A DNA stretch of 64,000 nt. Origin: Thermoleophilia bacterium. GTDB lineage: Bacteria > Actinomycetota > Thermoleophilia > Miltoncostaeales > Miltoncostaeaceae. This document shows, piece by piece, positions 1,365 through 8,923 of this stretch; the stretch's first letter is position 1, and the number at the start of each line of letters is the position of its first letter. The DNA is taken from the NCBI GenBank assembly GCA_028285405.1, contig JANQPH010000014.1:1-64000 (forward strand), read 5' to 3'. The notes under the pieces were generated by a model that saw nothing but the letters and a program-made list of their open reading frames with translations, made no database searches and was not told the DNA's origin. The translations under genes and the position numbers were made by a program.

Positions 1365-1479
1365 GCTCACCCACCATACCCCGCCGGTTCGCGCGGGTTG
1401 TCGCTCCACTGTCGCACTCTGCGCCGCGCTCGCTCGACCGCATCGACCGCTAGGCTCACCGCATCGCGGGCGGCGGTCG

Positions 1480-1640
1480 CCGCGAGGCGCTCGAGGGAAG
1501 CCGGTGAGATTCCGGCGCGGTCGCGCCACTGTGACCGGGAGCGGCGCCATTGGGCGAGAGCCCAGCCACTGGGGAGTCCCGGGAAGGCATGGCGCCGTGA
1601 CGAACGGGAGCCAGGAGACCTGCCGCCGCCCGGGACAGAT
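1480..1640 (+). ncRNA. Cobalamin riboswitch 1
   Basis: Shows the ordered conserved blocks of an adenosylcobalamin-type riboswitch: GGGAAGCCGGTG-ATTCCGGC near 1495, GCCACTGTGACC near 1525, AGCCACTGG at 1564, and the B12 box AGCCAGGAGACCTGCC at about 1609-1624. It precedes the DUF4430 lipoprotein and ECF genes by some 40 bases. With so short a platform and no clear U-tract, control is more likely at translation start than by termination (inference). High B12 should switch the operon off. Confidence 0.93.
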
Positions 1641-1702
1641 GGCGACCCTCGCGGAAGGGGAGCGCCCTGCGCACACGACAGCCCCCGCGCCGCCGCCTGG
1701 CG

Positions 1703-2587
1703 GTGCTCATCGCAATCGCCGTGGTCCTCGTCGCGGCGCTCGCCGGTGGCTGCTCGACGGTGGCACAGGACTCGCCGGGCTCAGAGGAGCCGGCCGGCCG
1801 GATCATCGCCACGGCTGACTTCGGCGACGAGCTCCTGCTCGAGCGACGCGTCCCACCGGACCAGTCCGTGATGCGTGCGCTCAGGGGCGCGACGGCGGTC
1901 GAGACGTCGTACGGCGGCGGCTTCGTCGCGGCGATGCTCGGTCGCGAGTCCGACCCGGCCGAGCAGCGGGACTGGTTCTACTGGGTCGATGGCGTGCTCG
2001 CCGATGTCGGCGCGCGCGACCGCGTGCTCGAGGACGGGGAGGAGGCGTGGTGGGACTACCGGGATTGGAGCGCACTGGCGGATGCGTGGGCCGTCGTCGG
2101 TCAGTGGCCCGCGCCGTTCGTGGCGGCCGGCGCGGAGGATCGCCAGGTCTTCGTCGACGAGCCGCTTCGGTCGACGCTCGCCGACGCGGGCGCTCGGCTG
2201 TCGAGCGATCCGAAGGCCAGGTTCCGCGTCCGAGTGGGCTCCGACACCGACCTCATGGGCGCTGATCCCGCGTGGGCTCGCGCGAGCCGGGATCCGGACG
2301 CCGCCGGCCTCACCGCCGCGATCGAGGACGGCCAGGTCACGGCGCTCGGGCCGGACGGGGAGCGGCGCGCTCCGGTCGCGGGCGCTCGCGCGCTCGCCGC
2401 CGCCGTACCGACCGGACTCGAGCCCAAGGACGGGGTACTGATGGTCGTCGCCGGGCTCGATCGCGATGTGGCCGAGCGTGCCGCAGCGGCGATCGCGCGC
2501 GACCCGGACGTGCTGGACCGGAGGTTCGCGCTCGTCTTCGACGGCGCGGGCCAGCCGATCGCAGGCCCCGGGGAGTCGCCGCGATGA
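1703..2587 (+). CDS. DUF4430-type lipoprotein, B12-regulated
   Basis: First gene behind riboswitch 1. It has a hydrophobic signal segment ending in the lipobox LAGGCS, so the mature protein should be a membrane-anchored lipoprotein. Residues about 35-120 look like a DUF4430 (transcobalamin C-terminal) domain, with the typical YWVDGV and WWDYRDW patterns. The C-terminal half is unassigned. Overlap with ecfT (ATGA) and the riboswitch make it the likely extracellular B12-capture partner of the ECF transporter. The canonical GTG at 1703 leaves a signal peptide without its basic n-region. An in-frame CTG at 1667, behind GGAAGGGGAG, would add LRTRQPPRRRLA and is probably the true start. Confidence 0.8.
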   Translation: MLIAIAVVLVAALAGGCSTVAQDSPGSEEPAGRIIATADFGDELLLERRVPPDQSVMRALRGATAVETSYGGGFVAAMLGRESDPAEQRDWFYWVDGVLADVGARDRVLEDGEEAWWDYRDWSALADAWAVVGQWPAPFVAAGAEDRQVFVDEPLRSTLADAGARLSSDPKARFRVRVGSDTDLMGADPAWARASRDPDAAGLTAAIEDGQVTALGPDGERRAPVAGARALAAAVPTGLEPKDGVLMVVAGLDRDVAERAAAAIARDPDVLDRRFALVFDGAGQPIAGPGESPR

Positions 2588-3429
2588 CGTCCAGGGCGCC
2601 GCTTCCCCTGCTTGCGCTCCTCGGGGCGACGATCGCGCTTGCGTTCCTGACGAGCCAGCCGCTGCTGATCCTGGCAATCGCGGCCGGCGCGCTGCTGCTC
2701 GCCGCCGCGGCCGGCCGGCGCACGGTCCCGATGCTCGTCGCCGGCGGGGTGTCGGCGATCGGGCTCGTGCTGCTGACGCCCATCCTCGGGGCCAACGGGA
2801 ACCTCATCGTCGCCGAGCTGCCGCGGATCCCGCTGCTCGACGGGGAGATCACGGCCGAGGAGCTCGCTGCCGGGGCCGTCCTCGGCCTTCGCCTGGTCGC
2901 CGTCACCGTGATGATCGGAGCCGTCCTGGTGCTCGCCGACCAGGATCGGATGCTGGCGCTCGCGATGCGGCTGGCGCCCAGATCGGCGCTGACCTGCGCG
3001 CTCGCTGCGCGCTCGCTCCCGACGTTGCGCCGCGACGCGACCGCGCTCACCGAGACCGCTCGTGCCAGGGGCGCGTCGCTGTCGACGGGCAGCTGGCTCC
3101 GGCGCGGCCGACACGCGGCACCGCTGGTGGTCCCGCTCGTGGGCTCGAGCCTGGAGCGATCGCTCGATGTCGCCGAGGCCATGTCGGCGCGCGGCTACGG
3201 CGCCGGGTCGCGGTCGAAGGTGGCCGAGCCGCCGCTCACGCGGAGGGACATCGTCATCCTCATCGCCGCGGCCGCGGTGCTGGGTGCCGGGATCGCGGCG
3301 ACGCTCCTCGGGGCGCTCGGGTTCGACTTCTACCCCACGCTCGACCCGGTTCTCGGCGGCGCGAGCGTGTCGATCGGACTGGCGATCATCGCCGCACTCG
3401 CCGCCGCCGCCTGGGCGGCCAGGAGATGA
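2584..3429 (+). CDS. ecfT: ECF transporter transmembrane T component
   Basis: A 281-residue integral membrane protein of the CbiQ/EcfT family, with several hydrophobic segments and the two Ala-Arg-Gly coupling motifs of EcfT (ARARGAS near residue 160, SARGYG near 201) that dock onto the two ATPase subunits. It starts at the ATG of an ATGA overlap with the lipoprotein gene and overlaps the ATPase gene the same way, so the four genes are translationally coupled. Riboswitch context argues for cobalamin or a precursor as substrate. The T component itself does not set specificity. Confidence 0.9.
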   Translation: MTSRAPLPLLALLGATIALAFLTSQPLLILAIAAGALLLAAAAGRRTVPMLVAGGVSAIGLVLLTPILGANGNLIVAELPRIPLLDGEITAEELAAGAVLGLRLVAVTVMIGAVLVLADQDRMLALAMRLAPRSALTCALAARSLPTLRRDATALTETARARGASLSTGSWLRRGRHAAPLVVPLVGSSLERSLDVAEAMSARGYGAGSRSKVAEPPLTRRDIVILIAAAAVLGAGIAATLLGALGFDFYPTLDPVLGGASVSIGLAIIAALAAAAWAARR

Positions 3430-4820
3430 GCGTGCTCGAGGCCCGAGCGCTCGCCTTCACCTACCCCGAGGCCCCCGCTCCAGCGCTCGGCCCGGTCGAT
3501 CTCCGCCTCGAGCCGGGGTCGCTCACCTTGCTCGGCGGATCGTCCGGGAGCGGCAAGACCACCCTGCTGCGCGCGCTCTCGGGTGCGATCCCGCATCTTC
3601 GTGCGGGGCACCTGTCCGGCACCGTGGAGCTCGACGGCGTGACCACGGTGGCGCTCGAGCCGGCTCGGCTCGCCCTCGAGGTCGGCAGGCTCTTCCAGGA
3701 CCCGGAGGCGCAGGCGGTGATGGCGACCGTCTGGCGCGATGTCGCGTTCGGACCCGAGAACGCCGGGCGCTCCCAGGCGCAGATCGTCGAGGACGTCGAA
3801 TGGGCGCTGGCGGCGGTCGGGGCCGAGCATCTCGCATCCAGGCGGGTCGACCAGCTCTCGTCCGGTGAGCGGCAGCGGGTGGCGATCGCCGGGCTGCTGG
3901 CGACCCATCCCAGGGTCCTGCTCATGGACGAGCCGCTGTCGCAGCTGGACCCCGCGGGAGCCTCCTCGCTGATCGCGCGGCTCTCCTCGCTGACCGAGTG
4001 CGGAATGGCGATCGTCGTGAGTGAGCATCGGGTCGGCGAGATCGCCGCGGTCGCCGATGAGCGGATCTCGCTCGACCTGGGCGGCGCGAGCGAGGACCGG
4101 CCCGTGGATGTGCCCGCGCCGACTCCGCGTTCGGGGGGAGCCGTCGCGGCGAGGACTCGAGGAATCGTCGCGGGGTACGGATCGGCCAGCGTGCTCTCCG
4201 GGTGTGACCTGACGCTGAGAGCGGGGACCGTCACCGCCCTTCACGGGCGAAACGGCTCGGGCAAGACGACGCTGCTGCGCGTCATCGCTGGCCTGCACCA
4301 ACCGTCGCGCGGCGCCGTCGAGATCGGTGGCCGCGACGTGACGGCCCAGCCGATCGAGCGACGTCTTCCGGCCGTCGGGTTTCTCGCTCAGGACCCCGGC
4401 CGGCACCTTCTGACCGAGTCGGTCGCCGACGAGGTCGAGCACGCGCTCCGGGTCCGAGGCGGATCGCGATCCGAGCGGCGACGCCGTTGCGAGCACGCGA
4501 TCACCGCGTGCGGCCTCGATGGATTCGAGCGGCGTCATCCGCACGACCTGTCGGTCGGGGAGCGCGAGCGGGTCGCGCTTGCGGCGACGCTGGCGCCGGC
4601 ACCCGACCTGCTGCTCTTGGACGAGCCGACGCGCGGAATGGACGAGCGGCACAAGCGCGACCTCGCGGCGCTCCTGCGCGAGGTCTCGGCTGCCGGAGCG
4701 GCCGTGCTCGTCGCCACGCACGACACGGTGTTTGCGAGCGCCGCCGCGGATCGCCACGTGGAGATGCGCGACGGGGGGCTCGAGCAGCACGCGCCCAGGT
4801 CCGCCGAGGTCGCCTCGTGA
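3426..4820 (+). CDS. ecfA: ECF transporter ATPase, two ABC domains fused
   Basis: A 464-residue protein holding two complete ABC ATPase domains in tandem, in place of separate EcfA1 and EcfA2. Domain 1 has Walker A GSSGSGKTT (about residue 39), signature LSSGE (about 143) and Walker B LLMDEP (about 165). Domain 2 has GRNGSGKTT (about 274), LSVGE (about 375) and LLLLDEP (about 395). Both look catalytically intact. It powers the membrane module made with the neighbouring T and S subunits. Start is the ATG in ATGA overlapping ecfT. Confidence 0.92.
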   Translation: MSVLEARALAFTYPEAPAPALGPVDLRLEPGSLTLLGGSSGSGKTTLLRALSGAIPHLRAGHLSGTVELDGVTTVALEPARLALEVGRLFQDPEAQAVMATVWRDVAFGPENAGRSQAQIVEDVEWALAAVGAEHLASRRVDQLSSGERQRVAIAGLLATHPRVLLMDEPLSQLDPAGASSLIARLSSLTECGMAIVVSEHRVGEIAAVADERISLDLGGASEDRPVDVPAPTPRSGGAVAARTRGIVAGYGSASVLSGCDLTLRAGTVTALHGRNGSGKTTLLRVIAGLHQPSRGAVEIGGRDVTAQPIERRLPAVGFLAQDPGRHLLTESVADEVEHALRVRGGSRSERRRRCEHAITACGLDGFERRHPHDLSVGERERVALAATLAPAPDLLLLDEPTRGMDERHKRDLAALLREVSAAGAAVLVATHDTVFASAAADRHVEMRDGGLEQHAPRSAEVAS

Positions 4821-5464
4821 GCCCGGCGCTGACGGTGGTCCTGGTCGCGCTCGTTGGCGCCGCGCTCGCGCTCGTCGTCCTCGAGCGCGGCTCGGGTGGC
4901 ACACAGCGGCTGGCTCTGGTGGCGTCGCTCGGCGCGGTCGCCGCGGCGGGGCGGGTGCTGTTCGCGCCGATCCCGAGCGTCCAGCCGGTCACGGTCATCT
5001 GCCTCGCGACGGGCGCCACGCTCGGGGCTCGCGCCGGGATCGCGGTGGGGGCGCTGGCGCCGCTGATCAGCAACGCGTTTCTCGGCCAGGGGCCGTGGAC
5101 GCCCGCTCAGATGGCGCTGTGGGCGGGCGTGGGCGCAAGCGGCGCGCTCCTCGGGCGGGCAGCCGCAAACCCGGTCGCGTTCGCCGCGGCGGCCGCGGCC
5201 TGGGGGATCACGTTCGGCTGGGCGATGAACGCGTGGTTCCTGGCGGTGTTCGGGCCGGAGCTGTCGATCGAGGCTCTACTCGTGACCGGCGCGCGCAGCC
5301 TGCCGTTCGACATTGCCCACCTCGTCGGCAACGTCGTCATCGCGCTCCTGGTCGGGCCCGCGCTGGTGCGCATGCTCGGCCGGTATGCGGCCCGTACCGG
5401 GATCGGGCCGGGCCGCATCCGGCTCCAGGGTGCCGGCACCGCGGTCGGCCGGGCGGTCAGGTAG
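4817..5464 (+). CDS. ECF transporter substrate-binding S component
   Basis: A 215-residue membrane protein of about six hydrophobic helices, sized like an ECF S component. It starts at a GTG overlapping the stop of the fused ATPase. The S component gives substrate specificity. Between two cobalamin riboswitches and next to DUF4430 proteins, the likely ligand is cobalamin or a corrinoid, a role resembling CbrT-type S components. Motifs such as PSVQPVT, ARAGIAVGALAPLISN and QGPWTPAQM fit the S-component fold (residues around the helix 3-4 region). Substrate is inferred from context, not from a ligand motif. Confidence 0.85.
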   Translation: MSPALTVVLVALVGAALALVVLERGSGGTQRLALVASLGAVAAAGRVLFAPIPSVQPVTVICLATGATLGARAGIAVGALAPLISNAFLGQGPWTPAQMALWAGVGASGALLGRAAANPVAFAAAAAAWGITFGWAMNAWFLAVFGPELSIEALLVTGARSLPFDIAHLVGNVVIALLVGPALVRMLGRYAARTGIGPGRIRLQGAGTAVGRAVR

Positions 5465-5485
5465 GCTCGCCGCACCCAATGGGTT

Positions 5486-5665
5486 GGTGGTCGCCCGAGA
5501 CGGGCGCCTCGAGGGAAGCCGGTGCGATTCCGGCGCGGTCCCGCCACTGTGACCCGCAAGCGACGTCGCTGGGCGCAAAGCCAGCCACTGAGGCACTCGC
5601 CTCGGGAAGGCGCATCGTCGCGTTTGAGCGGGAAGTCAGGAGACCTGCTTCCGACCCGGGCTGAC
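5486..5665 (+). ncRNA. Cobalamin riboswitch 2
   Basis: Second riboswitch of the same class. GGGAAGCCGGTGCGATTCCGG is at about 5513, GCCACTGTGACCC at 5542, AGCCACTGAGG at 5583, and the B12 box GTCAGGAGACCTGCTTCC at 5635-5652. The core is nearly identical to riboswitch 1, but peripheral stems differ. It stands between the ECF S gene and the secreted DUF4430 gene, so the two halves of the locus have separate B12-responsive leaders. The gene starts about 40 bases after the B12 box, again pointing to translational control. Confidence 0.94.
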
Positions 5666-5693
5666 AACGCGTCCTCCGAGGAGAGGTACCTCA

Positions 5694-7175
5694 GTGAGAA
5701 GAATTACGCGCCTCGCGCTGGCATCCGTCTGCGCGACCGGCCTTGCGGCGCCCGCCATCGCTTCTGCGATCGAGACCACGATCCGGGTCGAGGGCTCGAC
5801 GGCGACCACGATCCCTCAGTCGCCCCAGGACGTCGCGGCGTCCGGGAACACGCTGGTCACCGACACGATCGACGGTGACACGATCACCGTGCCGAGTCGA
5901 AGCGCCACGGCTCAGCTGGCGGCCGCGACCGGGAGTCGAGGCCTTGCCCATGGCTTCAGCATCTTCAACTTCGGGTCGGGCCCGACCTCGTTCGTCAACA
6001 CCATCGGCCCCGACGCGACCCCATCGGACTTCTCGAAGTTCTGGACCTTCAAGGTGAACCATGTGACCAGCTCCGTCGGGGCCGATGGCGCGCTGCTCTC
6101 GTCCGGGGACGAGGTGCTGTGGTTCTTCGGCCCGTCGGGGATCGACAGCGAGCTCGACGTCTCCGGCCCGTCGGCTCCGGTCGAGCAGGGCAAGCAGTTC
6201 ACGGTCAGCGTCAAGAGCTACGACGGTGCCGGCGCGTCCTCGCCCGCCTCCGGGGCAACGGTCAGCTACGCGGGGTCCGCGAGCACGACGAACAGTGCCG
6301 GCGTCGCCAGCCTCACCGCGACGGGCACCGGGACCCAGAGCATCGTGGCCACGGCGCCGAACGCGGTCCGGGACTCGGCGACGGTCTGCGGCTACCCCGC
6401 GGCCGACCCGACGGTCTGCGGTCTTGCCAAGCCGGAGGGCCCCGCCAGCGCGGCGCCGGCCCCGCGCGCCGTCTGCCGCTCGGTCGGCAGCTCGTCGTCG
6501 GGTGGCAGCACCGGCGGGACGTCTCGTCCGACGGATGCGACTTACCGGACCATCCAGTGGCACGCGCGGGTGACGATGCAGCGCGTTGCCGCCATGAACG
6601 CGTGGCTGGACGCCGGAATCGAGCCGGGCGACATCTGCGGCGGGACCTTCGGCCAGGCGCCGTTCGTCGCTGGCGTCACCCTCGCGGGCGGCGGGCCCAC
6701 CGACCAGGCGAGCGCGCCGAGCCCGCGACCGGTCGTGTTCGACCCGCCCGCGGCGCCGACGGCAGGCACGGGCGCGACGGCGAGCACGACCCTCGCGAAG
6801 ACCACGAGGCGGATCTCGATCGAGGCGCTGAAGCGCACCAACGCGCTCACCGCGCGCATCAGGGGCGGCCTCACCGGTGGTGACCTGCGGCCGGGGGCGA
6901 TCGGGGCTCGTCAGCTCGCGCCGGGAGCCCAGGTCCGCGCTGCCGCTCCGGGGGCCGCGGGCGCACCGGCGTCCGTCGCTCTCGCGACGAGCCCGACGCG
7001 GCCAGCGACGTTCACGCCCAGCCGTGCGTCGGCGACGGTGGACGCGCGCACCGCACGCGCGGGCCTCCTGCGTAGCAGTGACCTGTTCCAGGAGCTGCGC
7101 TCCGGCCTCGGCCCGGACGCGTTCGCCCCGTCCTCGGTCGGCACGGCGAGCCTGTCCGAGGGCGTTCGGCCGTGA
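5694..7175 (+). CDS. Secreted DUF4430 and Ig-like domain protein, B12-regulated
   Basis: A 493-residue exported protein. The GTG start follows GAGGAGAGG at 5679-5687. A Sec signal peptide covers about residues 1-25 and ends at AIASA. Residues about 27-150 resemble DUF4430 (FWTFKVNHV, SSGDEVLWFF), the beta domain that caps B12 in animal transcobalamin. Residues about 155-230 look like a bacterial Ig-like domain. A Pro/Ala-rich linker follows, and the C-terminal region carries a GGLTGGDLRPGAIGARQL pattern of the kind found in actinobacterial surface proteins. No transmembrane anchor is visible. Behind riboswitch 2, it is a candidate extracellular corrinoid binder. Confidence 0.82.
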   Translation: MRRITRLALASVCATGLAAPAIASAIETTIRVEGSTATTIPQSPQDVAASGNTLVTDTIDGDTITVPSRSATAQLAAATGSRGLAHGFSIFNFGSGPTSFVNTIGPDATPSDFSKFWTFKVNHVTSSVGADGALLSSGDEVLWFFGPSGIDSELDVSGPSAPVEQGKQFTVSVKSYDGAGASSPASGATVSYAGSASTTNSAGVASLTATGTGTQSIVATAPNAVRDSATVCGYPAADPTVCGLAKPEGPASAAPAPRAVCRSVGSSSSGGSTGGTSRPTDATYRTIQWHARVTMQRVAAMNAWLDAGIEPGDICGGTFGQAPFVAGVTLAGGGPTDQASAPSPRPVVFDPPAAPTAGTGATASTTLAKTTRRISIEALKRTNALTARIRGGLTGGDLRPGAIGARQLAPGAQVRAAAPGAAGAPASVALATSPTRPATFTPSRASATVDARTARAGLLRSSDLFQELRSGLGPDAFAPSSVGTASLSEGVRP

Positions 7176-8080
7176 CCGGCCGGAGTCGCCTGCGGGTACA
7201 GGGCCGACTCCTTGCGTTCGTCCTGTTGGCGTCGACATTTGCCGGCGCCAACGGTCTGGCCGGTGAGAGCGCGGCGCTCGGCGCCCCAACGGCGGCGGTC
7301 GACCGGGCGGCGGGCAAGAAAGCGGCGAGCTGGCTGGCGGGGCGCCCGACCGCGGCGATGTCGCCGGGTCTGCAGTCCGACGTGATCGTGGCGCTCGAGC
7401 GCGCCGGCGCGCGCCCGCGGGCGCTGCGGCCACGCGCGAACCGGCTCGCGCGGCTCGGCCCGGGGTACGCCACCACGGCGGGTGCGGCCGCCAAGGTCGC
7501 GCTGGCGGCTGACGCCGCCGGGCTCGATCCGGCGCGGCTGCGCGGCGTCGACTATCTGCGCCGGATCACCACCCGCTACCGCGGGGGCAGGTACGGCCGC
7601 TCGAGCTTCGACCAGGCGCTGTCGATGCTCGCGCTCGACGCTGCGGGGCGGCCGATTCCGCGAGCCACCCGGACCTTCCTGGCCTCGCGCCGAGGCTCGG
7701 GAGGATGGGGCTTCGACCTGCGTCGCGGCAGCAAGGACGAGGTCGACTCGACCGCGCTGATCGTCGTGGCGCTCCGTGCCGCCGGGGTGCCCGAGCGGGC
7801 GCCCGTGATCCGGGGGGCGATGGCGTGGCTCGCCAAGCAGCGCAACTCGGCAGGCGGCTATGCCGTCGCCGGCGGTGGCCGGCGGACCGGGGCCAACGCG
7901 ACGGCCCTCGTCATCCAGGCCGAGATCGCCGTCGGCCGCCGGCCGAACCGGAAGACCCTGGCCGCGCTCAGGCGTCTTCAGGCCGGCGACGGCTCGATCC
8001 GCTTCACCAGAGCCCAGGCCGGAGATCGCGGGATCGCGACGGCTGGGGCGGTCCCCGCCCTGATGGGTCGCCCCTACTAG
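7172..8080 (+). CDS. Secreted alpha/alpha-barrel (prenyltransferase/squalene-cyclase repeat) protein
   Basis: A 302-residue protein with an N-terminal signal segment (about residues 11-30), then repeats of the prenyltransferase/squalene-oxidase type: GSGGWGFD followed by DSTALIVVALRAAG, and SAGGYAV followed by NATALVIQAEIAVG. Human transcobalamin and intrinsic factor are built from exactly this alpha6/alpha6 barrel plus a DUF4430 domain. Here the barrel is a separate polypeptide overlapping the DUF4430 gene by GTGA. No terpene-cyclase acidic motif (DxDD) is seen, so a binding role is more likely than an enzyme. Assignment rests on repeats plus riboswitch context. Confidence 0.78.
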   Translation: MTGRSRLRVQGRLLAFVLLASTFAGANGLAGESAALGAPTAAVDRAAGKKAASWLAGRPTAAMSPGLQSDVIVALERAGARPRALRPRANRLARLGPGYATTAGAAAKVALAADAAGLDPARLRGVDYLRRITTRYRGGRYGRSSFDQALSMLALDAAGRPIPRATRTFLASRRGSGGWGFDLRRGSKDEVDSTALIVVALRAAGVPERAPVIRGAMAWLAKQRNSAGGYAVAGGGRRTGANATALVIQAEIAVGRRPNRKTLAALRRLQAGDGSIRFTRAQAGDRGIATAGAVPALMGRPY

Positions 8081-8104: not shown

Positions 8105-8923
8105 ATGCCTGGCGCGAGGGCACTCTCGGCCGAACCTCCCATGGCGCGCCCGGCCCCGCTCGGCGCGCTTGGGCGCGTGCTCTCGAACCCGACGGTCTTC
8201 GTCGTGGTCATGCTCGTGATCACGACCGCGGGGCTCGCGCTCGACCGGTACGCGAACCTCGGCCAGCAGATGCTCTTGAGCGTCGCCGCGTGGGGTTTCC
8301 TCGCCGTCGCCATGGTGCTCGCGAACCGAACCGAGCGCTTCCAGACGGTGGTCGTCGTGGTCATCGCGACTGCGGCCGAGGTGTTCGGCTCGCTGATCCT
8401 CGGCGCGTACGAGTACCGCCTCGAGAACCTGCCGCTGTTCGTGCCCGCGGGCCACGGGATCGTCTACCTGAGCGGACTCCGGCTCAGCCAGACGTCGTGG
8501 GTGCGGGCCCACCGGCGCTGGTTCATCGGTGCCGCCCTCGTCTTCCTGCTCGGATGGGCGACCCTCGGTCTGACCGTCCTCGATCGCCTCGATGTCGCCG
8601 GTGCGATCGGCGCGGTGATCCTGGCCGGGTTCTTGCTTCGCAGCCGCAACGCGGTGATCTACGCCGGCGTGTTCTTCTTCGTCGCGTTCCTCGAGATCTA
8701 CGGAACCGCGATCGGCACATGGCGGTGGGCCGAGACGATCCCCTGGATCGGGCTCCCGGACGGGAACCCGCCGAGCGGTGCGGCCGTCGGCTACGTGCTC
8801 TTCGACATCGTCGCCCTGTCGCTGGCGCCCCATCTGATGCGCGGCTGGGACCGAATGCGAGGCCGCACCGAGGACGGACGACCGTCACGAGAGCCCACCG
8901 AGGCGACGTCCGGCCCCGGCTGA
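8105..8923 (+). CDS. Multi-pass membrane protein of unknown function
   Basis: A 272-residue protein with about seven hydrophobic helices. It has conserved-looking loops such as AEVFGSLILGAYEYR, VPAGHGIVYLSG and IGTWRWAETIPWIGLP. The charged residues inside membrane segments suggest a small-molecule enzyme or transporter, but no family name can be given. It follows the B12 locus by 24 bases in the same direction without a riboswitch of its own, so it may be read from the same transcript; a role in B12 uptake is possible but unsupported. Confidence 0.7.
   Translation: MPGARALSAEPPMARPAPLGALGRVLSNPTVFVVVMLVITTAGLALDRYANLGQQMLLSVAAWGFLAVAMVLANRTERFQTVVVVVIATAAEVFGSLILGAYEYRLENLPLFVPAGHGIVYLSGLRLSQTSWVRAHRRWFIGAALVFLLGWATLGLTVLDRLDVAGAIGAVILAGFLLRSRNAVIYAGVFFFVAFLEIYGTAIGTWRWAETIPWIGLPDGNPPSGAAVGYVLFDIVALSLAPHLMRGWDRMRGRTEDGRPSREPTEATSGPG

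What the first reader, a model, noticed from the sequence alone, without database searches (positions are those of the whole stretch)
1480..8080. B12 acquisition locus: ECF transporter with a transcobalamin-like binder split into separate proteins
Seen: two cobalamin riboswitches lead adjacent gene sets: lipoprotein with DUF4430 pattern, ecfT, fused ecfAA and an S component; then a secreted DUF4430 plus Ig-like protein and a secreted alpha/alpha-barrel protein. Known: animal transcobalamin and intrinsic factor are an alpha6/alpha6 barrel joined to a DUF4430-type domain. Inference: here barrel and cap are separate polypeptides that may clamp B12 together outside the cell and hand it to the lipoprotein and ECF complex, without a BtuF-type binding protein.
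Basis: partly seen in the sequence, partly recalled or inferred. Interest (0 to 1): 0.82.

Follow-up and report, generated by a model that had tools for sequence, protein, structure and literature searches.

The report
Vitamin B12 importer with split catcher
An actinobacterium that apparently cannot make vitamin B12 seems to catch it outside the cell with two separate proteins resembling the two halves of the animal B12 carrier, and to pass it to a dedicated membrane pump; relatives fuse one of those halves directly onto the pump.

Summary
Two full cobalamin riboswitches, the only two in the genome, head adjacent gene sets: DUF4430 lipoprotein–EcfT–EcfAA–S component, then secreted DUF4430 protein–secreted alpha/alpha toroid. 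The S component belongs to the CbrT (cobalamin) family: 6fnp, E=1.2e-26. The DUF4430 profile's best solved relatives are transcobalamins. The toroid folds confidently as an alpha6/alpha6 barrel but is at least as close to terpene cyclases, whose catalytic motif is incomplete here. The genome has MetH and methylmalonyl-CoA mutase but no CbiC or CobS, so it must import B12. Toroid and DUF4430 recur beside this S component in 51 and 55 of 61 S-baited loci from Actinobacteria, Firmicutes and others, often behind B12 riboswitches. Fusions link the parts: DUF4430+toroid (known) and, apparently undescribed, S component+toroid in many Thermoleophilia. Burroughs et al. 2007 predicted the DUF4430/toroid/CbiOQ scavenging system, so this is a new variant, not a new kind. 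B12 binding and hand-over remain untested. 'No BtuF' holds for the locus, not the genome.

The parts
1457..1641 (+). Cobalamin riboswitch 1, leader of the lipoprotein-ECF operon
   Evidence: RF00174, 83.5 bits, model 1-189/189
1703..2587 (+). Lipoprotein with a transcobalamin-cap-like domain (DUF4430); start codon uncertain
   Evidence: PF14478 41.1 bits, residues 54-119; hydrophobic segment followed by an LAGGC lipobox-like motif
2584..3429 (+). EcfT (CbiQ-type) transmembrane coupling subunit
   Evidence: PF02361 48.7 bits; ATGA overlap with the lipoprotein gene
3426..4820 (+). EcfAA: two ECF ATPase domains in one chain
   Evidence: PF00005 two stretches, 195.6 bits; TIGR01166 cbiO 295.5 bits; ATGA overlap
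4817..5464 (+). S component, CbrT (cobalamin) family
   Evidence: Family profile A1 vs PDB: 6fnp_A (CbrT) E=1.2e-26, next chain E=0.048; GTGA overlap
5471..5666 (+). Cobalamin riboswitch 2, leader of the DUF4430-toroid pair
   Evidence: RF00174, 101 bits, model 1-189/189
5694..7175 (+). Secreted DUF4430 (transcobalamin cap-like) protein with an Ig-like beta region and a long Ala/Pro-rich C-terminal part
   Evidence: PF14478 28.9 bits; family profile top PDB hits transcobalamin-2 E=2.8e-5 and transcobalamin-1 E=1.3e-4; fold hits 3u7z, 5no0, 5np4; signal peptide by sequence
7172..8080 (+). Secreted alpha/alpha toroid (alpha6/alpha6 barrel) protein
   Evidence: AF2 pLDDT 88.6, pTM 0.84, 12 helices; toroid fold matches; GTGA overlap with the DUF4430 gene

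Best explanation
This is a B12 (cobalamin) acquisition locus: an ECF-CbrT-type importer with an extracytoplasmic catcher made of transcobalamin-like parts. When B12 is scarce, both riboswitches allow expression. The secreted toroid and the secreted DUF4430 protein form a two-polypeptide clamp, with B12 held between barrel and beta-grasp cap as in transcobalamin. The clamp, possibly helped by the DUF4430 lipoprotein at the membrane, delivers B12 to the CbrT-like S component, and EcfT/EcfAA drives import for MetH and methylmalonyl-CoA mutase. Shown here: gene content, homologies, riboswitch sites, auxotrophy by gene content, conserved linkage, and fusions. Inferred: B12 binding by toroid and cap, their joint clamp, the role of the lipoprotein, and the hand-over.
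For: Riboswitches. S component is CbrT family. DUF4430 profile matches the transcobalamin cap in sequence and fold. Genome has MetH (2029 bits) and methylmalonyl-CoA mutase (1238 bits) and a PduO-type adenosyltransferase, but no CbiC or CobS. With the S component as independent bait, 61 loci with enough flank: toroid in 51, DUF4430 in 55, EcfT in 56, EcfA in 61. Cobalamin riboswitch in 20 of 22 single-operon Thermoleophilia loci; the two exceptions are cut by contig ends. DUF4430 gene directly upstream of the toroid gene in 23 of 28 other family loci, in another frame in 22. DUF4430+toroid fused in one chain: L131 and 37 of the 61 loci. S component+toroid fused in one chain: 8 of 20 unselected class loci, 18 of 20 chosen for long frames, and named locus L210. 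Genomes with DUF4430 carry CbiC less often: 6/65 against 20/54, Fisher p=3e-4, not corrected for kinship.
Against: No binding or transport data exist. By sequence and fold the toroid is at least as close to terpene cyclases (TM about 0.66) as to intrinsic factor or transcobalamin (TM 0.50-0.54). One Asp of the DXDD region remains in most toroids. CbrT of L. delbrueckii transports B12 in liposomes without such proteins (PMC5997447), so the catcher may be accessory. A few S-component loci lack a toroid nearby, and G027 keeps the S component but lacks the DUF4430-toroid unit.
Confidence: 0.75

Rival explanations
1. Same B12 importer, but toroid and cap do not clamp B12 together: one of them alone binds corrinoid as a buffer or storage protein, and the S component takes up free B12 unaided.
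For: CbrT alone binds B12 with high affinity and ECF-CbrT transports without a soluble binder (PMC5997447). In G018 toroid and DUF4430 genes lie on different contigs. Some loci carry DUF4430 but no toroid nearby (L202, L204, L169).
Against: DUF4430+toroid fusions in many Firmicutes and one Thermoleophilia, and S component+toroid fusions, argue for joint action.
Confidence: 0.15
2. The toroid is an extracellular or membrane-side enzyme (terpene cyclase-like or cobamide-modifying) that happens to be co-regulated by B12.
For: Best sequence and fold matches of the toroid are squalene-hopene cyclase and MstE; 16 of 64 family toroids keep the full DXDD motif.
Against: The window toroid reads EVDST at that site, and the motif is incomplete in 48 of 64; the chain is secreted and stands alone or is fused to DUF4430 or to the S component, unlike cyclases.
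Confidence: 0.05
3. The ECF transporter imports cobalt (CbiMNQO-like) rather than B12.
For: CbiQ and CbiO are the nearest family names for T and A, and cobalamin riboswitches can control cobalt transporters (PMC2667541).
Against: The S component is CbrT-like with no CbiM match; the genome lacks CbiC and CobS, so imported cobalt could not become B12; transcobalamin-type caps flank the transporter.
Confidence: 0.03

Closest known systems
Bacterial transcobalamin-like SLBB (DUF4430) + alpha/alpha toroid proteins in CbiO/CbiQ operons (Burroughs et al. 2007, PMC1796856)
   Same: Same domains, same kind of operon, same B12-scavenging prediction; a second SLBB protein in the operon was also noted there.
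   Different: That paper names low-GC Gram-positives, planctomycetes and euryarchaea, has no mention of riboswitches, and describes toroid fused to SLBB. Here toroid and cap are separate, translationally coupled genes, and relatives fuse the toroid to the S component.
ECF-CbrT of Lactobacillus delbrueckii (PDB 6FNP, PMC5997447)
   Same: S component of the same family (E=1.2e-26), with EcfT and two EcfA domains.
   Different: Dedicated rather than shared ECF module, EcfA pair fused in one chain, operon under a B12 riboswitch, and extracytoplasmic DUF4430 and toroid partners.
Animal transcobalamin, intrinsic factor, haptocorrin
   Same: Cap homologous to DUF4430 by sequence and fold; toroid of the same fold class.
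   Different: Animal proteins are one chain, toroid then cap; here two chains in the order cap gene, toroid gene, with an added Ig-like region. Homology of the toroids was not resolved by sequence.
NCBIfam NF053823, SCO2321 family membrane protein
   Same: Toroid region matches at 40.9 bits, E=1.2e-10.
   Different: Far below that family's cut-off (300 bits); function unnamed; its gene neighbourhood was not examined here.

Membership tests
ECF-type cobalamin importer (CbrT family) | S component homologous to CbrT | tested here: met
   Profile A1: 6fnp_A E=1.2e-26, 96.9 bits, over 169 residues
ECF-type cobalamin importer (CbrT family) | EcfT plus two EcfA ATPase domains | tested here: met
   CbiQ 48.7 bits; ABC_tran twice in one chain
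ECF-type cobalamin importer (CbrT family) | ATP-dependent B12 uptake | not testable with these tools
   Needs a transport assay
Transcobalamin/intrinsic factor-like B12 binder | Beta-grasp cap of the transcobalamin type | tested here: met
   Sequence profile hits 5no0, 4kki, 2bb5; Foldseek 5no0/5np4 with TM 0.67 by target length
Transcobalamin/intrinsic factor-like B12 binder | Alpha6/alpha6 toroid | tested here: met
   AF2 12 helices, pLDDT 88.6; matches 3kq4, 2pmv, 2v3n at TM 0.50-0.54, but terpene cyclases at up to 0.66
Transcobalamin/intrinsic factor-like B12 binder | Both domains in one polypeptide | tested here: not met
   Separate genes 5694-7175 and 7172-8080 in different frames; same in relatives
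Transcobalamin/intrinsic factor-like B12 binder | Corrinoid binding | not testable with these tools
   No ligand docking or assay available
Bacterial SLBB/toroid B12-scavenging system (Burroughs 2007) | Secreted SLBB/DUF4430 proteins with CbiO/CbiQ in an organism lacking B12 synthesis | tested here: met
Class II terpene cyclase | Intact DXDD catalytic motif | tested here: not met
   EVDST in the window toroid
Cobalt ECF transporter CbiMNQO | CbiM-type S component | tested here: not met
   No Pfam match for the S component at E<=1; best solved relative is CbrT
BtuFCD | PF01497 binding protein with FecCD permease at the locus | tested here: not met
   None among the locus genes; such a set exists elsewhere in the genome, without a riboswitch

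The most novel reading that the evidence does not exclude
A class of ECF transporters, so far described as working without soluble binding proteins, uses a dedicated extracytoplasmic transcobalamin-type clamp: split into two secreted chains in this family, and with the toroid built onto the S component through an extra transmembrane helix in sister families, placing the catcher directly over the translocating subunit.
Probability: 0.55. Interest if true: 0.78.

Novelty: new variant of a known kind. Interest (0 to 1): 0.62.

Why it matters
If right, it explains how B12-auxotrophic bacteria of the Gram-positive type concentrate a scarce cofactor, adds an external binding stage to ECF transport, and supplies living intermediates (cap alone, split pair, fused pair, pump-fused toroid) for the proposed bacterial origin of animal B12 carriers. 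The S component-toroid fusion gives a single protein in which hand-over from catcher to translocator could be studied directly.

Tried and rejected
Toroid profile against PDB sequences to place it nearer transcobalamin than terpene cyclases: inconclusive, since squalene-hopene cyclase repeats dominate. A profile of fused toroid+DUF4430 proteins did not recover the transcobalamin toroid either, only its cap at E=0.03-0.4. Cobalt transport was rejected (S component CbrT-like, no CbiC or CobS). Frameshift or assembly error as the cause of the split was rejected: the same split, in different frames and in many cases with overlapping stop and start, is seen in 22 other loci. Absence of BtuF-like proteins from the genome was rejected. 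Literature searches in the open library found no experimental study of DUF4430/toroid proteins in bacterial B12 uptake; subscription papers were not searchable.

Full report
Observation. The two cobalamin riboswitches are real and complete and are the only ones in the genome. The first heads lipoprotein (DUF4430), EcfT, EcfAA and an S component; the second heads a secreted DUF4430 protein and a secreted toroid. Neighbouring genes overlap by four bases at four junctions, so each set looks like one translationally coupled operon. Exactly two DUF4430 proteins were found in the genome, both here.

Substrate. The S component has no Pfam match by itself, but the profile of its Thermoleophilia family hits CbrT of L. 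delbrueckii (6fnp) at E=1.2e-26, while the next solved chain is at 0.048. CbrT is an experimentally proven cobalamin and cobinamide S component (PMC5997447). The genome encodes MetH, methylmalonyl-CoA mutase and a cobalamin adenosyltransferase, plus CarH-like regulators, but has no CbiC and no CobS: it needs cobalamin and apparently can neither make it nor complete it. Across 119 genomes (own plus relatives), those with DUF4430 carry CbiC in 6 of 65 cases, those without in 20 of 54 (Fisher p=3e-4, kinship not corrected). Cobalt import is therefore unlikely.

Cap. A profile of DUF4430 domains from this system retrieves, among all PDB chains, transcobalamin-2 and transcobalamin-1 and one bacterial DUF4430 structure. 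The model of the secreted protein (pLDDT 79) gives the same proteins as best fold matches. This is a tested relationship, not a recollection.

Toroid. The 7172 product is predicted with confidence as an alpha6/alpha6 toroid. Fold comparison puts squalene-hopene cyclase and MstE first (TM to 0.66), with intrinsic factor and transcobalamin further down (TM 0.50-0.54) among prenyltransferases and alpha-2-macroglobulin. Fold alone cannot decide. The class II cyclase motif DXDD is complete in 16 of 64 family toroids, all of them separate toroids next to the S component in non-actinobacterial loci; the window reads EVDST. Enzymatic activity is thus unlikely for the window protein but not excluded for those 16.

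Conservation. In the window's family, 23 of 28 other toroid loci have the DUF4430 gene directly upstream, in another frame in 22; three of the other five are cut by contig ends. G027 (95% complete) keeps the S component and the lipoprotein but shows neither toroid nor second DUF4430 protein, as expected if these two form one module. In other Thermoleophilia families the genes mostly sit in one operon: riboswitch, DUF4430 protein, lipoprotein, EcfT, EcfAA, S component, toroid, with the riboswitch found in 20 of 22 loci scanned and the other two truncated. A search of 84,980 species genomes with the S component as bait gave loci from Thermoleophilia, Desulfotomaculum-like bacteria, Moorella, Paenibacillus, Bacillus, Clostridium, lactobacilli, Armatimonadetes, Chloroflexi and DHVE2 archaea; of 61 with enough flank, 55 hold DUF4430 and 51 a toroid. 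Six of seven further named loci scanned, five of them Firmicutes, also carry cobalamin riboswitches.

Fusions. DUF4430 and toroid occur in one chain in 37 of those 61 loci and in Thermoleophilia G109 (L131). S component and toroid occur in one open frame in 8 of 20 class operons fetched without regard to frame length, in 18 of 20 further genomes chosen because the S frame was long (a biased sample), and in L210. In many of these a further hydrophobic helix lies between the S component and the toroid (for example L123 residues 238-256). If the S component ends inside the cell, as known ones do (general knowledge), this helix puts the toroid outside. I found no description of such a fusion in the open literature searched.

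Mechanism. The toroid is fused to the cap in some lineages and to the translocating subunit in others. The simplest reading is that cap, toroid and S component act in sequence on the same ligand, B12. How the secreted pair stays at the cell in the window organism is unknown: neither has a recognisable anchor. The lipoprotein, a second cap-like domain at the membrane, may dock the pair. These last steps are inference.

BtuF. No PF01497 protein is at the locus, but the genome has two: one next to a FecCD-type permease and an ATPase, one without a transporter beside it in the ORFs listed. Neither is behind a cobalamin riboswitch. So this locus is the riboswitch-controlled B12 importer, but a second route cannot be excluded.

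Prior knowledge. Burroughs et al. (2007) already defined the domain (SLBB), noted toroid fusions, CbiO/CbiQ operons and lack of B12 synthesis, and proposed B12 scavenging. New here: direct tie to the CbrT family and to B12 riboswitches, the conserved split pair in a Thermoleophilia family, and the S component-toroid fusion. Hence a new variant of a known, experimentally untested kind.

Noticed in passing
window 8105-8923 (+): A polytopic membrane protein without a significant Pfam match is adjacent to the riboswitch-DUF4430-toroid unit in the window and, on the opposite strand, in seven other loci of the family (L095, L097, L099, L106, L108, L110, L113). Role unknown.
   Followed up: partly
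L139 8276-10576, L141 8282-10549: In related loci a cobalamin riboswitch directly heads EcfAA and the S component; no EcfT or DUF4430 gene was found nearby.
   Followed up: partly
L130 11418-11806: Two cobalamin riboswitches back to back in G108, one heading the DUF4430/toroid/ECF operon, the other a divergent gene with a weak toroid match.
   Followed up: no
L221 2615-5736 (genome contig C10): A PF01497 binding protein, FecCD-type permease and ATPase set without riboswitch; substrate (heme, siderophore or B12) unresolved.
   Followed up: partly
L223 3236-4132 and L224 3-1247: Two proteins related to CarH, a B12-dependent repressor family, in the same apparently B12-auxotrophic genome.
   Followed up: no
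L104 4137-5304: In G009 a cobalamin riboswitch heads a toroid gene followed by the DUF4430 lipoprotein gene, a reshuffled order.
   Followed up: no
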